Positions 32,187 to 37,704 of a DNA stretch of 64,000 bases are shown piece after piece. The notes under the pieces were generated by a model, which was not told where the DNA came from, searched no databases, and was given only the letters and a program-made list of their open reading frames with translations. Both the position numbers and the translations under genes were made by a program. Within the stretch, counting starts at the first letter, position 1, and each line of letters begins with the position of its first letter. Source of the DNA: Hymenobacter busanensis (lineage in GTDB: Bacteria; Bacteroidota; Bacteroidia; Cytophagales; Hymenobacteraceae); the NCBI RefSeq assembly GCF_008727865.1, contig NZ_VTWU01000001.1, forward strand, positions 682,001 to 746,000. Direction: 5' to 3'.

Positions 32187-32657
32187 ATGGCCGTTAATTA
32201 TTATACCCCCGAAGGCTTGCAGAAGCTCAAGGACGAACTGCAGGACCTCAAAATCCGCGGCCGCGCCGAAGCTGCCGAGCAGCTGCGCGAGGCCCGCGAC
32301 AAAGGCGACCTGAGTGAAAACGCCGAATACGATGCCGCCAAAGAAGCCCAGGGCTTGTTGGAGCTGAAAATCTCCAAGCTGGAAGAAGTTATCGGCAACG
32401 CCCGCGTTATCGACGACTCCAACTTGGATGCCACCAAGGTGCTCATTCTGAGCAAGGTGAAGCTCAAGAACCTGAAGAACAACATGATTCTCGACTACCT
32501 GCTGGTGGCCGAGGAAGAAGCCAACCTGGCCGCCGGCAAAATCTCGGTGAAGTCGCCCATCGGCAAAGGCCTGCTGGGCAAGTCGGCCGGCGACGTGGCC
32601 GAAATTACCGTGCCCGCCGGCAAGCTGCAGTTCGAAATCCTGGAAGTAAGCCGCTAG
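32187..32657 (+). CDS. greA: Transcription elongation factor GreA
   Basis: The 156-residue protein has the two domains of Gre factors: an N-terminal coiled coil (YTPEGLQKLKDELQDLK, KGDLSENAEYDAAKEAQ) with the acidic tip residues, and a C-terminal FKBP-like domain (ISVKSPIGKGLLGKSAGD). It binds the secondary channel of RNA polymerase and stimulates transcript cleavage at stalls. It starts at the ATG at 32187; upstream in-frame codons cross the leader hairpin and are not coding. Confidence 0.94.
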   Translation: MAVNYYTPEGLQKLKDELQDLKIRGRAEAAEQLREARDKGDLSENAEYDAAKEAQGLLELKISKLEEVIGNARVIDDSNLDATKVLILSKVKLKNLKNNMILDYLLVAEEEANLAAGKISVKSPIGKGLLGKSAGDVAEITVPAGKLQFEILEVSR

Positions 32658-32720
32658 CTGCAGCAGCTATTGGCTGTTAGCTGATGGCCTTTCGCTTGTC
32701 AGCCGGCTTTGGTAACACCC

Positions 32721-32755
32721 CGAAAAGGCTTCTGTGAAAAACAGAAGCCTTTTCG
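32721..32755 (+). terminator. Terminator of greA
   Basis: A perfect 15-base stem (32721-32735 with 32741-32755) closes a GAAAA loop. The arms end in AAAA/TTTT. Confidence 0.8.
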
Positions 32756-32803
32756 CGTTCTTGGCCGCTCCTAACCGCCAACCGCTAAAAGCCAACCGCC
32801 AAC

Positions 32804-33673
32804 ATGCCTTCCATCTTTTCCCGCATCGTCTCGGGCGAGCTGCCCGCCTACAAAGTAGCCGAAGACGACCAGCACCTGGCCTTCCTCGACATCACGCCCC
32901 TGGTAGAAGGCCACACGCTGGTGATTCCCAAGCGCGAAGTCGATTACATCTTCGACCTGCCCGCCGACGAGCTAGCCGCACTCCACCAGTTTGCCCAGCG
33001 CGTAGCCAAGGGCGTGAAGGCGGCCGTGCCGTGCAAGCGCATTGGCGTGGCCGTGATTGGGCTGGAGGTGCCGCACGCCCACATTCACCTGATTCCGATG
33101 AACCGGGTATCGGACATGAACTTCGCCAACCCCAAGATTAAGGTGGCCGAAAAACGCATGCAGGAGCTGGCCGAAGCCATTGCCGCCCAAGTGTCAGGCG
33201 CCGACGGTGCTTCCGTCAAGGCGGCTTCCAGCCCCGCCCCGCACGCGGCCGAGGGCAAAGCCGCCAAGGCAGGCGGCAAGCAAGATCCTGCCCTCGAACA
33301 GTTGGAGCTCCTCACCAAAGACCTGCTTTTCCTGAGCGAGTCGGAGTCGCCGCTGACGGTGGTGAGCTACGACGCGCCAAGTGGTGAGGTGACGCCGAAA
33401 GACGTGCTGAAGCTGCTCGACAAGCCTGCCGACACCAAAGTGGACGTGCAGGACCTGATGTTCTTCCTGCGCAACCACACCGCCGACGACGGTGTGCTGG
33501 GCAACCCCGACCTGGCCAACCGCTACAAGGCCCTGCAGATGTACCTCAAGCAGGAGCTGGAAAACACGCAAGTGTACCGCGTGGGCACCGGCCCGCAGCT
33601 GGAAGCCTACGCGCTGGGCAAAACCAGCACCGGCAAGCTGGCGGGCTTCAAGGTGACGCTGGTGGAAACCTGA
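32804..33673 (+). CDS. HIT-domain protein fused to a NuiA-like nuclease inhibitor domain
   Basis: The protein has 289 residues. Residues 1-125 are a HIT-family nucleotide-binding domain, with the histidine triad at H91, H93 and H95 (PHAHIHLIPM), as in HINT-type phosphoramidate hydrolases. Residues about 130-162 are an Ala/Lys-rich linker. Residues 163-289 match NuiA, the Anabaena inhibitor of the nuclease NucA: LLFLSESESP, NTQVYRVG and the end GKTSTGKLAGFKVTLVET all follow it closely. In NuiA, the Glu of the SES.E motif and the C-terminal Thr are reported to reach the nuclease active site; both are kept here. There is no signal peptide, so it is cytoplasmic. A NucA-like nuclease is encoded at 34306-35769. 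I do not know of a description of this fusion. Confidence 0.85.
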   Translation: MPSIFSRIVSGELPAYKVAEDDQHLAFLDITPLVEGHTLVIPKREVDYIFDLPADELAALHQFAQRVAKGVKAAVPCKRIGVAVIGLEVPHAHIHLIPMNRVSDMNFANPKIKVAEKRMQELAEAIAAQVSGADGASVKAASSPAPHAAEGKAAKAGGKQDPALEQLELLTKDLLFLSESESPLTVVSYDAPSGEVTPKDVLKLLDKPADTKVDVQDLMFFLRNHTADDGVLGNPDLANRYKALQMYLKQELENTQVYRVGTGPQLEAYALGKTSTGKLAGFKVTLVET

Positions 33674-33824
33674 GCCCGGTTGGGGCTGGTTTGGAGCGGT
33701 TTATGCAGGGTAGGTAGCGGCGCATCGGCGAGCAGCGGGTGAAAACGGCTGACCACGGCACGTAAGAACCGGTAACTCGCGTTGATGCGTACGTCTGCCT
33801 CGTTCACCCCTCGCACCCACCGTT

Positions 33825-34232
33825 ATGTTGAAACTTCTTTTGGGCTTGATGCTGCTGGCTTGCAGCACCGCCGGCTTGGCGCAAAACCAGGCCGCCGCCG
33901 TACCCGCCCCGGCCGAAACCTCGGTGCCAACGACGGCCGCTGCCCCGGCCCCGGCCAACATCGAAGCCTACGTGCGCGAGCAGACCAAGGGCGGCGAGCT
34001 GGATTTCACCAAAATGCTGGCCTCGAAAAAGCAGAGCATGTTTTTGCACGACGGCAACATGTACACCAAGCCCGAATACGCCTTGGTGCTGTGGGGGCTG
34101 CGCGTAAAAGCCCTCGGCATCGAATCGGCGGAACGGGCCTGCGCGTTGTACGCGGCCGCCAGCAACCGCCCGCTCACGCCCGCCGAGAAGAAGGCGCTGG
34201 TGCAGGGCTTCGACAGCGGCACCCGCGACTAG
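33825..34232 (+). CDS. Small secreted protein or lipoprotein between inhibitor and nuclease genes
   Basis: This 135-residue protein begins MLKLLLGLMLLACSTAGLAQ. It could be a lipoprotein (lipobox LLAC) or be cleaved by signal peptidase I after GLA. An Ala/Pro linker (about 20-48) leads to a compact domain of about 85 residues, predicted helical, with no family I recognise. It ends at a palindromic terminator shared with the convergent nuclease gene. Function is unknown; a link to the nuclease is only positional. Confidence 0.6.
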   Translation: MLKLLLGLMLLACSTAGLAQNQAAAVPAPAETSVPTTAAAPAPANIEAYVREQTKGGELDFTKMLASKKQSMFLHDGNMYTKPEYALVLWGLRVKALGIESAERACALYAAASNRPLTPAEKKALVQGFDSGTRD

Positions 34233-34247
34233 CTCCCCGTACCTTTC

Positions 34248-34289
34248 AACGAAAAGCCCCGCCCGATGCATCGGGCGGGGCTTTTCGTT
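34248..34289. terminator. Perfect palindromic bidirectional terminator
   Basis: The 42-base sequence is a perfect palindrome (arms 34248-34268 and 34269-34289) with AAAA and TTTT in the arms. It lies between the convergent small secreted protein gene and the nuclease gene. Confidence 0.85.
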
Positions 34290-34305
34290 GTTTGGCCTGC
34301 GTCGT

Positions 34306-35769
34306 TTAGCGCGTGGGGCCGCTGTCGACTTTGGCTTCGAGCTGGGCCTGTACCTCCACGGGCAGCTTGCTGAGCAGGTCGTAGCCGGTGGCGTTTTCGA
34401 TGGCGTCGACGCTCACGCGGTAGCGGGCCCAGTCGGGGTCGATGGTGTTGTCGTTGGGGGTGTCGACGGCAATGAGGCGGGCCTGGCCGGCGGCTACGCG
34501 CTGCAGGTCGTTGTCGCCCTGGGGCAGCACTACCAGCACTTTCCAGATGCGCTTGGGCACCGTCACGCGGCCCTGGTCGAGCGTGGTCATGAGGCCATTG
34601 GTGCCGGTGCCGCCCTTGCCGTAGCTGCCCATGAGCACATATACCTCGTTGCCGGCGGCCACCAAGTCGCGGCTGTAGTCTTCCAGATGATTCCAGGTGC
34701 GCTGGTTGTTGTTGGGCGCCTGCGGAATCATGTTGGTCATCAGAAACGTGCTGGAGTTGTCGTCGAGGTCGAATGAGCGGTCGGCCGAGGGGCAGTTGTG
34801 CCCTTTGTCGAAGCCCGAACCCGAGTAGGAATTGCGCGTGACCTGGTACCAGCCGCGGGGCAGGGCCGGGTCGGGGCGAAAATCATCCTGCCGCGGAGCC
34901 GCACCCAGCCAGGCTTTGTTCAGGTGCCAGAGTACCCAGTTGGGAATGCCCCGGTCGCGGGAGTAGCTCAGGGTGTACTGGGGCTTCACCATGAGGTAGT
35001 TGTTGGGCGACAGGTCGGGGTTCGAGGTGGCGCCGCTGGGGTTGCCGAAAGTGAGCGGGTCGTCGCGGCGGGCGGCGCCGGTGGCCTGAGCCGCCGCGGG
35101 CGTGGTGGGCTGTGGGGCGGGCGTAACGGTTTGGGTGGTGGTGGTGACGGTGGAGCCGGCGGGCGGCTTGGTGCCGGCGCGGTAGGGCTCCACGGTGAAG
35201 TCGTCGAGGTTTAGCCGGTCGTCGCCGCCGTCGGTTTTGCGGATTTCGAGGCGCAGCGGCCCGGGGCGGTTCACCTGCACCGCCACGGGCAGGCCGGGGC
35301 CTTCCACTTTCACCTCGGTGCCGGCGGGCTGCCAGCTGCGGCCGCGGTCGGCAGAGTACCAAAGCTGCCAGCGCACGGCGCCATCCTTGCCGTAGCTGGC
35401 GGTGAATACGCGCACCGTGCCGGCGCCGGTGGCCAGGTCGAAGCGCATTTGGGCGCGGCCCTTGCCGCGCAGGCGCAGGGCCTTCTGGCCGTGCTTGTGG
35501 TCTTGCTCGGCCGCGCCAATGAGGGCGTCGTCGAGCAGCCACTTGCCCGAGGCCAGTTGCTCTTCGTCGGGGGCATAGCCGCCTTTGCTGCCCGTTTCAA
35601 AGGTTTCGAGCAGGGCACGGCCGGCTTGTTGGGCGGGAGCTTCGGCGGCCGGCGGCGCGGGGGCCGACGCGGCGGTGCGGTCGTCGTCGGCGGTGCGCTG
35701 GAAGCAGGCGGCTAAGACGCCGGTGGCCAGCAGCAGGCCGGAAAGCAGGGGAGAGGCAGTAAGGCGCAT
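34306..35769 (-). CDS. Lipoprotein DNA/RNA non-specific endonuclease, NucA-like
   Basis: The protein has 487 residues from the ATG at 35769. It has a lipoprotein signal (GVLAAC, C22), then a beta-rich N-terminal domain (about 45-210, with LLETFETGSKGGYAP and SYGKDGAVRWQLWYSADRG) and a Thr/Pro linker. The C-terminal half is a nuclease of the beta-beta-alpha-metal NUC family: DKGHN (D321-H324), FLMTNMIPQAPNNNQRTWNHLE (split here as N355 and E363). By alignment from memory these match H124, N155 and E163 of Anabaena NucA. Arg of the usual DRGH is Lys here. It should be tethered outside the cytoplasm and degrade DNA and RNA. A TATCTTGC box lies just upstream on the minus strand. Confidence 0.9.
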   Translation of the reverse strand: MRLTASPLLSGLLLATGVLAACFQRTADDDRTAASAPAPPAAEAPAQQAGRALLETFETGSKGGYAPDEEQLASGKWLLDDALIGAAEQDHKHGQKALRLRGKGRAQMRFDLATGAGTVRVFTASYGKDGAVRWQLWYSADRGRSWQPAGTEVKVEGPGLPVAVQVNRPGPLRLEIRKTDGGDDRLNLDDFTVEPYRAGTKPPAGSTVTTTTQTVTPAPQPTTPAAAQATGAARRDDPLTFGNPSGATSNPDLSPNNYLMVKPQYTLSYSRDRGIPNWVLWHLNKAWLGAAPRQDDFRPDPALPRGWYQVTRNSYSGSGFDKGHNCPSADRSFDLDDNSSTFLMTNMIPQAPNNNQRTWNHLEDYSRDLVAAGNEVYVLMGSYGKGGTGTNGLMTTLDQGRVTVPKRIWKVLVVLPQGDNDLQRVAAGQARLIAVDTPNDNTIDPDWARYRVSVDAIENATGYDLLSKLPVEVQAQLEAKVDSGPTR

Positions 35770-35937
35770 GATGCGGGCAAGATACGGAACGGCGGCGGTG
35801 CCCTCATGCAGATGAAAGGCGGTTGGTGCGCGGAAGGAGTATAGTTCGGGTTCCCCAAGCGGTGCTTGCATATTTATCAGCCAAGGCCGCTTTTGCCGCC
35901 TACCTTGCTGCCCGAACGCCTCCTTCACCTGCTACCG

Positions 35938-37704
35938 ATGCCCCAACTCTACCCGCGCACCCTGCTGGCCCTGGCCGCCGCCTTGGCCACCACCGCCTGC
36001 CAGTCGACCACCGACACGACCTCAATCGAAACGGCCGCTACCGCCGACCAGGCCTTCGAGCGGTACAAAGCCCGCTTCGTGGATTCGCTCTGGTACTACA
36101 ACCCCACCTGGGCCAGCAGCCAGGGCTACCACCGCTACGACTCAATGCTGGTGCTGCCCACGGCCGGGCGGCGGCAGCTGGAGGCCAAAACCAACGCCCG
36201 CTGGCAGCGGGAGCTGGCCGGGTTTAAGGTAGGAGAGCTGTCGGTAAACAACCAGACCGACTACCGCCTGATGGTGAACGAGCTGCGCTCGGAGCAATGG
36301 TACGCCGACACGCTACGGCAGTGGGAGTGGAACCCGGCGCTTTACAACGTGAGCGAACCGGTGGCCGACATCCTGAACGGCCGCTACCAACCGCTCGACC
36401 ACCGCCTGCGCAGCATTTCCATGAAAATCAGCCGGGCGCCGGAGTACTACGAGGCGGCTGAAACCAACCTGAAGAACCCCACCAAGGAGCACCTCACGCT
36501 GGGCATCAACCAAAACCGGGGCGGGCTCGACGTATTTGGCAAGGCGCTGGAAGACAGCATTGCCCGCTCGGGGTTGTCGGCACGCGAGAAGGAGGAGTTT
36601 CGGGGGCGCATTGCCACTACGCGGCTGGCCATCGAAAACTACATCAGTTTCCTCGACAAGCAGTTGCGGCCCCGCGCCACGCGCAGCTTCCGCATCGGGC
36701 CGGAGCTGTTCCGCCAGAAGTTTGCCTACGACATTCAGTCGGCCTACTCGGCCGATGCGGTGTACCAGAAAGCCCTGCGCCACAAGCAGGAACTGCTGCA
36801 GGACATGGCCGTGCGCGCCACCCGCCTGTGGCCGAAATACTTCGGCCAGCAAGCCATGCCCGCCGATACGCTGACGCGCATCCGGCAGGTTATCGGCAAG
36901 CTCACCCAAACCCACGCTACGCCGGCGGGCTTCGTAGCGGCCGTGCGCCAGCAGATTCCGGCCCTGGTGAAATTCGTGGACGACAAAAAGCTGCTGACCC
37001 AGGACCCCTCGAAGCCGCTGGTGGTGCGCGAAACCCCGCTGTACATGCGCGGCTCGGGCGCGTCGGTGTCGGCCCCCGGGCCCTACGACAAGTCGGCCAA
37101 CACCTACTACAACGTGGAGCCGCTGACCGGCACGCCCGCCGCCCAAGCCGAAAGCTACTTGCGCGAGTACAACCAGTACACGCTGCAGATTCTCAACATT
37201 CACGAGGCCATTCCGGGCCACTACACCCAATTGGTGTATTCCAACCAGTCGCCGAGCATCATCAAGGCGGTGCTGGGCAACGGGGCCATGGTGGAGGGCT
37301 GGGCCGTGTACGCCGAGCGCATGATGCTGGAAAACGGCTACGGCGGCGGTTCCGACGAAATCTGGCTGATGTGGGACAAGTGGAACATGCGCGTGACGCT
37401 CAACACCATTCTCGACCACCAAGTGCAGGCCGGCGCCATCACCGAGCCGCAAGCCGTACAGATGTTGCAACGGGAAGGCTTTCAGGAAGAAGCCGAGGCG
37501 CGCAACAAGTGGCTGCGCGCCACCCTCTCGCAGGTGCAGCTCAGCAGCTACTTTACGGGCTACACCGAAATCTACGACCTGCGCGAGGAGCTGAAACGGC
37601 AGCAGGGCAAGAGCTTCGATTTGAAAGCCTTCCACGAGCAGTTCCTGAGCTACGGCTCGGCGCCGGTGAAATACATTCGGCAGATGATGCTTCAGAAACA
37701 ATAA
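35938..37704 (+). CDS. DUF885 family lipoprotein (putative metallopeptidase)
   Basis: The protein has 588 residues from the ATG at 35938. It begins with a lipoprotein signal (ALATTACQ, lipobox TTAC). The DUF885 domain fills the rest, with the metal-binding motif HEAIPGHY at residue 422 and a downstream VEGWAVYAER stretch that should give the third ligand. DUF885 proteins are probable M32-like carboxypeptidases. The signal implies a location in the envelope, where it could trim peptides for uptake. A TACCTTGC box lies 30 bases upstream. Confidence 0.87.
   Translation: MPQLYPRTLLALAAALATTACQSTTDTTSIETAATADQAFERYKARFVDSLWYYNPTWASSQGYHRYDSMLVLPTAGRRQLEAKTNARWQRELAGFKVGELSVNNQTDYRLMVNELRSEQWYADTLRQWEWNPALYNVSEPVADILNGRYQPLDHRLRSISMKISRAPEYYEAAETNLKNPTKEHLTLGINQNRGGLDVFGKALEDSIARSGLSAREKEEFRGRIATTRLAIENYISFLDKQLRPRATRSFRIGPELFRQKFAYDIQSAYSADAVYQKALRHKQELLQDMAVRATRLWPKYFGQQAMPADTLTRIRQVIGKLTQTHATPAGFVAAVRQQIPALVKFVDDKKLLTQDPSKPLVVRETPLYMRGSGASVSAPGPYDKSANTYYNVEPLTGTPAAQAESYLREYNQYTLQILNIHEAIPGHYTQLVYSNQSPSIIKAVLGNGAMVEGWAVYAERMMLENGYGGGSDEIWLMWDKWNMRVTLNTILDHQVQAGAITEPQAVQMLQREGFQEEAEARNKWLRATLSQVQLSSYFTGYTEIYDLREELKRQQGKSFDLKAFHEQFLSYGSAPVKYIRQMMLQKQ

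What the first reader, a model, noticed from the sequence alone, without database searches (positions are those of the whole stretch)
32804..35769. HIT-NuiA fusion next to a NucA-like lipoprotein nuclease: a possible nuclease/inhibitor system
The protein at 32804-33673 joins a HIT nucleotide hydrolase (H91-H93-H95) to a domain matching NuiA, the Anabaena inhibitor of the sugar-non-specific nuclease NucA. Within 640 bases, convergent, is a lipoprotein NUC nuclease whose D321-H324, N355 and E363 align with NucA H124, N155 and E163. The key inhibitor residues (SES.E and C-terminal Thr) are kept. The inhibitor has no signal peptide while the nuclease does, so it would protect the cytoplasm before export, or act on leaked enzyme. 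Fusing the inhibitor to a HIT domain could link protection to nucleotide (e.g. dinucleotide or AMP-adduct) metabolism from degraded nucleic acid. I know of no description of this fusion.
Basis: partly seen in the sequence, partly recalled or inferred. Interest (0 to 1): 0.85.

Follow-up and report, generated by a model that had tools for sequence, protein, structure and literature searches.

The report
Nuclease antidote fused to HIT enzyme
A bacterium that exports a DNA/RNA-shredding enzyme appears to protect its own interior with an antidote that has become part of an unrelated everyday enzyme, and the same pairing seems to have arisen twice, which hints that the everyday enzyme may matter to the protection.

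Summary
Window 32804-33673 encodes a HIT domain followed by NuiA (PF07924, 2e-31). Its convergent neighbour is a lipoprotein nuclease closest to NucA among solved structures (2e-77). The fusion is the HINT orthologue behind greA with NuiA added; fused NuiA domains group together (100/99), so one event in the Hymenobacter/Solirubrum lineage suffices. Other genera of the family carry separate nuiA genes, beside the nuclease in 16 of 21 loci. In 200 family genomes, all 192 with a NucA-like nuclease also have NuiA; 5 have NuiA alone, 3 neither. Outside the family pairing is looser. The Glu and C-terminal Thr that I recall as NuiA's metal-bridge residues are kept (E in 61, T or S in 62 of 63 fused proteins). 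New: a second HIT-NuiA fusion in a distant family with another HIT branch (24% identity), and in a sister genus the two genes overlap by ATGA. Most likely it is a cytoplasmic antidote to exported NucA-type nucleases carried on a HIT protein. Inhibition and any HIT role are untested.

The parts
32187..32657 (+). greA (transcription elongation factor), the conserved upstream neighbour of the HIT gene in Bacteroidota
   Evidence: ORF (MAVNYYTPEG... start chosen by me; gene name recalled); greA-like match upstream of the HIT gene in 23 of 23 unfused Cytophagales loci and 65 of 67 other Bacteroidota loci
32721..32755 (.). 14-bp perfect inverted repeat (terminator-like hairpin) between greA and HIT-NuiA
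   Evidence: script; 38 of 67 fused loci (some species twice) have a stem of 7 or more in this gap, median gap 168 bases; the unfused loci L072-L094 have 3-57 bases between the tblastn match ends
32804..33673 (+). HIT-NuiA fusion protein, 289 aa
32834..33100 (+). HIT domain (aa 11-99), motif H91-A-H93-I-H95-L
   Evidence: HAHIHL[IV] in 63 of 63 non-identical fused proteins
33188..33289 (+). variable linker, aa 129-162
   Evidence: median pairwise dN/dS 0.58, mean identity 32%
33290..33670 (+). NuiA domain, aa 163-289; E179 equals Glu24 and T289 equals Thr135 of Anabaena NuiA
   Evidence: the role of the two residues is recalled from the NucA-NuiA structure paper, which is not held
33825..34232 (+). 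small ORF, 135 aa, signal-peptide-like start, no Pfam match up to E 1; not claimed as part of the system
34250..34287 (.). 38-base palindrome between the convergent genes, terminator-like in both directions
   Evidence: read by eye from the sequence; not among the sites listed by the consensus scan
34306..35769 (-). NucA-like lipoprotein nuclease, 487 aa
34360..35010 (-). DNA/RNA non-specific endonuclease domain PF01223 (aa 254-470) with D321, H324, N355, E363
35704..35769 (-). lipoprotein signal peptide, Cys22
   Evidence: sequence MRLTASPLLSGLLLATGVLAAC; lipobox rule recalled

Best explanation
The protein is a cytoplasmic antidote. Its C-terminal NuiA domain binds NucA-type nucleases that the cell makes for export and blocks their active site, so that precursors, misfolded copies or leaked enzyme cannot destroy the cell's own nucleic acids. 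By homology with Anabaena NuiA, E179 and the free C-terminal T289 would reach the catalytic metal; this requires NuiA to be the last domain, as it is in the three fusion architectures seen here. The N-terminal part is the ordinary HINT enzyme of Bacteroidota, with intact histidines. E. coli and human HINT are homodimers, so the fusion may carry two inhibitor domains and be made along with a housekeeping protein. Shown here: domain identity, kept residues, co-occurrence in the family, convergent linkage, grouping of fused NuiA on one branch, purifying selection on NuiA, correlated divergence with the nuclease. Inferred: inhibition, metal bridge, dimer, cellular location and expression.
For: NuiA profile 2.1e-31 and fold match to NuiA of the NucA complex. 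Nuclease closest to NucA. Same 200 family genomes: both 192, NuiA only 5, nuclease only 0, neither 3 (Fisher 4e-5). Order draw, 212 genomes after leaving out 29 own-family rows, nuclease threshold 1e-40: 45 both, 7 NuiA only, 10 nuclease only, 150 neither. The Glu24 equivalent is E in 61 and D in 2 of 63 fused proteins, E in 26 of 26 standalone; the last residue is T in 59, S in 3, D in 1 of 63 fused, T in 26 of 26 standalone. Of 64 hand-transcribed nuclease places in g1/g5, 60 are on the NuiA contig and all 60 are convergent, 56 within 20 kb. Median dN/dS 0.34 for NuiA, 0.58 for the linker, 0.11 for HIT. NuiA distances correlate 0.74 with the nuclease and 0.57 with the fused HIT domain; partial 0.52 against 0.19. 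Standalone nuiA of the family has a nuclease within 1.5 kb in 16 of 21 loci and is convergent with it in the two cyanobacterial plasmids opened. Anabaena NuiA is a competitive NucA inhibitor (PMC5758888, passages).
Against: No assay and no complex model. The Fisher tests ignore shared ancestry, and the convergent linkage is partly plain inheritance. Outside the family many NucA-like nucleases have no PF07924 partner: 10 of 55 in the order draw, 20 of 35 in the phylum draw, and none of 20 further standalone NuiA loci from the order and phylum had the nuclease within about 2 kb (L256-L275). Five family genomes keep NuiA without a detected nuclease. The own genome has three NucA-like matches for one NuiA, so specificity is open. 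In one search the control pairs also have positive partial correlations (0.19-0.29, above nearly all permutations), and NuiA and the nuclease both evolve fast, which may raise theirs. The HIT part of the structure model is poor (pLDDT mostly under 50).
Confidence: 0.82

Rival explanations
1. HIT is a working partner, not just a carrier. It binds or hydrolyses nucleotides or AMP adducts that appear when nucleic acid is cut, and so gates the inhibitor or repairs the consequences of nuclease escape. The fusion links inhibition to that activity.
For: Two fusions use two different HIT branches: the Hymenobacter HINT, and an ATP-adenylyltransferase-like HIT in family f47 (3 of 3 held genomes of genus g190), with 24% identity between the two HIT parts. 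In sister genome G540 the HIT and nuiA genes are separate but overlap by 4 bases, ATGA. Of three fusion partners found, two are HIT and one is chorismate synthase. Under an assumed 3 HIT genes in 3000, at least one HIT among the other two partners has a chance of about 0.2% (my estimate). HIT histidines are kept in 63 of 63. The C-terminus of E. coli HinT affects its catalysis (PMC3130732, passages).
Against: No ligand, assay or contact between the domains is shown. The linker is long and fast-changing. Among the standalone NuiA loci scanned, a separate HIT ORF lies next to NuiA only in G540, and two genes downstream in G675 where two relatives lack it. In G532 and G673 the nuclease lies on another contig. 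Only three fusions are known, so chance cannot be dismissed firmly.
Confidence: 0.3
2. The NuiA domain is a passenger that became fused by loss of a stop codon, kept because a housekeeping protein gives steady expression. HIT and NuiA do not talk to each other.
For: HIT is the HINT orthologue of the phylum, strongly conserved, and its place behind greA is ancestral. A variable linker joins the two. A different housekeeping enzyme, AroC, carries NuiA in G337. NuiA follows the nuclease more than HIT.
Against: HIT was joined twice, from different branches.
Confidence: 0.55
3. The NuiA domain has been repurposed and no longer inhibits nucleases.
For: Five of 197 NuiA-bearing family genomes lack a detected NucA-like nuclease. 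Three of the four of these that I read keep a terminal Thr (G090, G100 VET; G187 TQT), which could mean another use.
Against: Metal-bridge residues and the free C-terminus are kept. No nuclease-only genome was seen among the 200 family genomes. NuiA-nuclease distances are correlated. In one nuclease-less genome, G045, the last residue has changed to N, as expected for decay (L235).
Confidence: 0.1

Closest known systems
NucA/NuiA of Anabaena sp. PCC 7120 (PDB 2o3b, 1j57, 1zm8)
   Same: Homologous nuclease and inhibitor with the key residues kept; nuiA and nuclease genes are convergent neighbours in the two cyanobacterial plasmids opened (Nostoc sp. PCC 7524 and Gloeothece, not PCC 7120 itself)
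   Different: Here the inhibitor is the C-terminal domain of a HIT enzyme, and the nuclease is a longer lipoprotein with an extra N-terminal region
HINT (histidine triad nucleotide-binding protein), e.g. E. coli HinT
   Same: HIT domain with intact histidines; HINT orthologue behind greA as in other Bacteroidota
   Different: Carries a 127-residue nuclease-inhibitor domain at its C-terminus
Barnase/barstar and B. subtilis NucA/Nin (barnase recalled; Nin from PMC5758888 passages)
   Same: Nuclease paired with a dedicated protein inhibitor
   Different: Nin shares no meaningful sequence or structural similarity with NuiA (PMC5758888 passages); no fusion to a metabolic enzyme (recalled)

Membership tests
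NuiA (PF07924) | profile match over the curated cut-off, full length | tested here: met
   109.3 bits against 22.1, profile positions 3-130 of 130
NuiA (PF07924) | Glu24 and C-terminal Thr135 (roles recalled) | tested here: met
   E179 and T289 aligned
NuiA (PF07924) | NuiA fold | tested here: met
   Foldseek 2o3b_B E 2.2e-10, TM 0.85 on target
NuiA (PF07924) | inhibits a NucA-type nuclease | not testable with these tools
   no complex prediction or assay available
NucA-type nuclease (PF01223) | profile match, D-x-x-H, N, E catalytic residues | tested here: met
   1.3e-52; D321, H324, N355, E363; NucA 2e-77
HINT/HIT | HIT profile and H-x-H-x-H triad | tested here: met
   1.7e-18; HAHIHL[IV] in 63 of 63
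HINT/HIT | NCBIfam equivalog cut-off for a named HIT enzyme | tested here: not met
   best matches M_plasma_HinT 54 bits against 130, PRK10687 30 against 206: HIT family yes, no named equivalog
HINT/HIT | nucleotide hydrolase activity | not testable with these tools
   no assay
Toxin-antitoxin / polymorphic toxin immunity | toxin delivered into rival cells, with immunity gene | not tested
   the nuclease has a lipoprotein-like signal; no delivery module was sought

The most novel reading that the evidence does not exclude
HIT proteins have been recruited at least twice, from different HIT branches, as functional partners of NuiA-type nuclease inhibitors, so that a HIT nucleotide-binding site senses or repairs the effects of nuclease escape and tunes the inhibitor. 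This would give a concrete cellular role to a bacterial HINT protein.
Probability: 0.28. Interest if true: 0.82.

Novelty: new variant of a known kind. Interest (0 to 1): 0.6.

Why it matters
NuiA is known to me from one cyanobacterium, as a lone gene (recalled; searches found no other study). Here it is present in 197 of 200 genomes drawn from a bacterial family, and in all 192 of them that have the nuclease, and in two genera it is built into a ubiquitous enzyme whose reason for conservation was called a mystery in 2011 (PMC3130732, abstract). The two HIT-NuiA fusions turn 'what is HINT for?' into a testable question: does HIT activity change nuclease inhibition?

Tried and rejected
A second inhibitor family as the partner of nuclease-only genomes: PF23151 (NuiA_2) was sought in 30 nuclease-only and 30 comparison genomes and rang in 0 of 60, and in none of the 14 controls, so it says little.

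HIT as a regular neighbour of standalone NuiA: in the loci a separate HIT ORF appears beside NuiA only in G540 (L241 and L250, the same place) and two genes downstream in G675 (L271). It is absent near NuiA in G683 and G740 of the same genus, so I treat G675 as coincidence.

A promoter for the fusion: no sigma-70-like site in 32500-36000, which is uninformative for this phylum.

Plasmid records (PLSDB): 24 records hold a NuiA match, all of cyanobacterial genera (taxonomy of the ten genera recalled); most are annotated 'nuclease A inhibitor family protein' or 'nuclease inhibitor homolog', three have no annotation under the match. I opened two of the 24. No record covered 80% of the window fusion.

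The nuclease-inhibitor complex could not be predicted: the tool folds single chains of window or locus proteins only.

Seven bore on NuiA, Hymenobacter or fusion terms (9, 12, 13, 57, 58, 64, 79). I saw their listings, and passages of three listed papers; none showed a HIT-NuiA fusion. Most subscription papers are not in that library, and domain databases, which I could not query, may list the architecture.
Full report
What is there. The window ORF 32804-33673 encodes 289 aa with two Pfam domains, HIT (aa 11-99, 1.7e-18) and NuiA (aa 163-289, 2.1e-31). Sequence search of solved structures puts the second domain next to Anabaena NuiA (2o3b_B 6.7e-13, 1j57 8e-13). An AlphaFold2 model from 13 fused sequences is confident for NuiA (ten-residue blocks 74-91 pLDDT) but poor for HIT; Foldseek finds NuiA of the NucA complex first (E 2.2e-10, TM 0.85 on target) and a HIT protein third. 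The nuclease on the other strand, 34306-35769, is 487 aa, has PF01223 at 1.3e-52 and NucA as its closest solved relative (2e-77), with D321, H324, N355 and E363 in place and a lipoprotein-like signal (lipobox rule recalled).

Origin of the fusion. In Bacteroidota the HIT gene lies behind greA: 23 of 23 unfused Cytophagales loci and 65 of 67 other Bacteroidota loci. All 35 genomes tested have this HINT orthologue, 33 of them with no other match (a more distant HIT match exists in the own genome). In genera g1 and g5 of the window's family this same gene continues into NuiA: 52 of 53 fetched g1/g5 stretches, the window, G187 and all 13 named full-length matches (Hymenobacter species, Solirubrum puertoriconensis, two uncultured bins; some are the same species as g1/g5 stretches) read as one HIT-NuiA frame behind greA. 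The exception, L188 from G196, has an odd 5' end. The 78 g1/g5 NuiA places listed lie in open frames of 254 aa or more; places of the other g1/g5 genomes were cut from that list, and 12 of them were seen. Fused NuiA domains fall on one side of a branch with support 100/99 (63 fused, 26 standalone, Anabaena; 128 columns, which the program calls few), so one fusion event suffices. In fused loci the greA-HIT gap has a median of 168 bases, with a hairpin stem of 7 or more in 38 of 67, against 3-57 bases between match ends in the 23 unfused loci.

Pairing with the nuclease. PF07924 is found in 197 of 200 family genomes and a NucA-like nuclease (E 1e-5 or better) in 192 of the same 200. Both occur in 192, NuiA alone in 5 (G045, G090, G100, G130, G187), the nuclease alone in none, neither in 3 (G007, G032, G062); Fisher 4e-5, not corrected for ancestry. 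In the order draw of 241 genomes, taking only nuclease matches below 1e-40 (a threshold chosen by eye) and leaving out the 29 own-family rows with matches, 45 have both, 7 NuiA only, 10 nuclease only and 150 neither. In the phylum draw of 345, three of them own-family: 15, 5, 20 and 305. So outside the family the nuclease is often found without a recognised NuiA. Neighbourhood tells the same: of the 21 standalone nuiA loci of the family among L002-L031, 16 have a nuclease within 1.5 kb, two of the five misses coming from nuclease-less genomes, while none of 20 standalone loci from the order and phylum (L256-L275) has one within about 2 kb, although G295 (L234) and G680 (L246) outside the family do. 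Orders are both head-to-tail and convergent; in the two cyanobacterial plasmids opened they are convergent (76 bases apart in Nostoc sp. PCC 7524, overlapping by 27 in Gloeothece). In g1/g5, 64 hand-transcribed nuclease places gave 60 on the NuiA contig, all 60 convergent, 56 within 20 kb; 1 lay on another contig and 3 had no listed NuiA place. g1 and g5 genomes average 3.4 and 3.5 nuclease matches (some may be distant relatives, since the limit was 1e-5), with one NuiA match in all but G189 and G199, so one inhibitor may have to serve several nucleases.

Is NuiA still an inhibitor? From the NucA-NuiA structure paper (recalled; not held) the catalytic metal is bridged by Glu24 and the C-terminal Thr135 of NuiA. 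The aligned residues here are E179 and T289. Across 63 non-identical fused proteins the first is E in 61 and D in 2; the last residue is T in 59, S in 3 and D in 1. In 26 standalone proteins both are kept in 26 of 26. Because the last residue is needed, NuiA should be C-terminal in any fusion, and it is in the three architectures seen. Of four nuclease-less genomes' NuiA proteins that I read, G045 has lost the terminal Thr (VVEN) and three keep it; G130 was not read. Pairwise dN/dS medians are 0.11 for HIT, 0.58 for the linker and 0.34 for NuiA (61 sequences, 719 pairs, 616 usable for the linker). NuiA distances correlate better with the nuclease (0.74, partial 0.52) than with the HIT domain in the same protein (0.57, partial 0.19) over 58 loci. 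Control pairs also show partial correlations (NuiA-GreA 0.20, nuclease-HIT 0.29, nuclease-GreA 0.27), each above nearly all of 500 permutations, so shared ancestry is not fully removed, and the fast rate of both NuiA and nuclease is a possible confounder.

A second HIT-NuiA fusion. Reading long NuiA frames of the phylum draw turned up two proteins in family f47, G532 and G673, with an N-terminal HIT domain and a C-terminal NuiA domain (Pfam HIT 1.6e-13 and NuiA 1.9e-41 for G532). The third held genome of that genus, G744 (13% contamination), has it too; the five other f47 genomes with NuiA have no fusion. This HIT is closest to ATP adenylyltransferase in NCBIfam (2.5e-51, below that model's cut-off) and only 24% identical to the window HIT; its NuiA is 47-49% identical to standalone NuiA of its own family and 32% to the window's, so I take the two fusions as independent; no joint tree was built. 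In G540 of a sister genus the two genes are separate and overlap by ATGA; in G487 and G544 they lie apart. G532 and G673 have a nuclease match at about 9e-51, on other contigs. A third fusion, chorismate synthase-NuiA, occurs in one fragmented genome, G337, and may be an assembly effect. Two HIT partners out of three is more than I expect by chance under rough assumptions (about 0.2% for at least one HIT among the other two partners if 3 of 3000 genes are HIT), but the sample is small; frames of 176-213 aa in G340, G403, G395, G255 and G054 were not read, and one search's list was cut.

How it most likely works. The cell makes NucA-type lipoprotein nucleases for export, probably to use or clear outside nucleic acid (inferred; nucleases of this type are believed to serve nutrition and sometimes as bactericides, PMC4890671 passages). 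The HIT-NuiA protein shows no signal peptide and would stay inside, where NuiA plugs the active site of any nuclease that folds before export. [quoted passage not shown] E. coli and human HINT are homodimers and the C-terminus of E. coli HinT affects its catalysis (PMC3130732 passages), so the fusion may be bivalent and the HIT enzyme itself altered. I put carrier-only at 0.55 and a functional HIT role at about 0.3.

Novelty. NuiA, NucA and HINT are known; the fusion, its conserved convergent nuclease and its second appearance on another HIT branch were not found in my paper searches, which cover only openly licensed papers. I class it as a new variant of a known kind.

Noticed in passing
L239 2078-3127 (-), L240 2234-3139 (-), L249 979-1881 (+), L241 2192-3171 (-): Second HIT-NuiA fusion in family f47 genus g190 with a different HIT branch; in sister genome G540 the HIT and nuiA genes are separate with a 4-base ATGA overlap.
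   Followed up: yes
L062 3618-5117 (-): NuiA at the C-terminus of chorismate synthase (AroC) in one fragmented Cytophagales genome, G337; real stop loss or assembly effect not resolved.
   Followed up: partly
33825-34232 (+): Small secreted-looking ORF of 135 aa without a Pfam match between the fusion and the nuclease.
   Followed up: partly
L236 113-826 (-): A second, broken NuiA copy about 1.5 kb downstream of the intact fusion in G187, the one g1/g5 genome with no NucA-like nuclease detected.
   Followed up: no
32721-32755: In fused loci the HIT gene lies further from greA (median 168 bases, a hairpin in 38 of 67) than in the 23 unfused loci (3-57 bases between match ends); possibly an own transcription unit.
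   Followed up: partly
L063 4209-5393 (-) and G000:C5:477646-478380: Two further NucA-like nucleases in the own genome, besides the window's, with only one NuiA match in the genome.
   Followed up: partly
G215, G225, G254, G292, G301, G305, G328, G348, G353, G408 and 20 phylum genomes: NucA-type nucleases without any PF07924 match; these may use an unrecognised inhibitor or none.
   Followed up: partly
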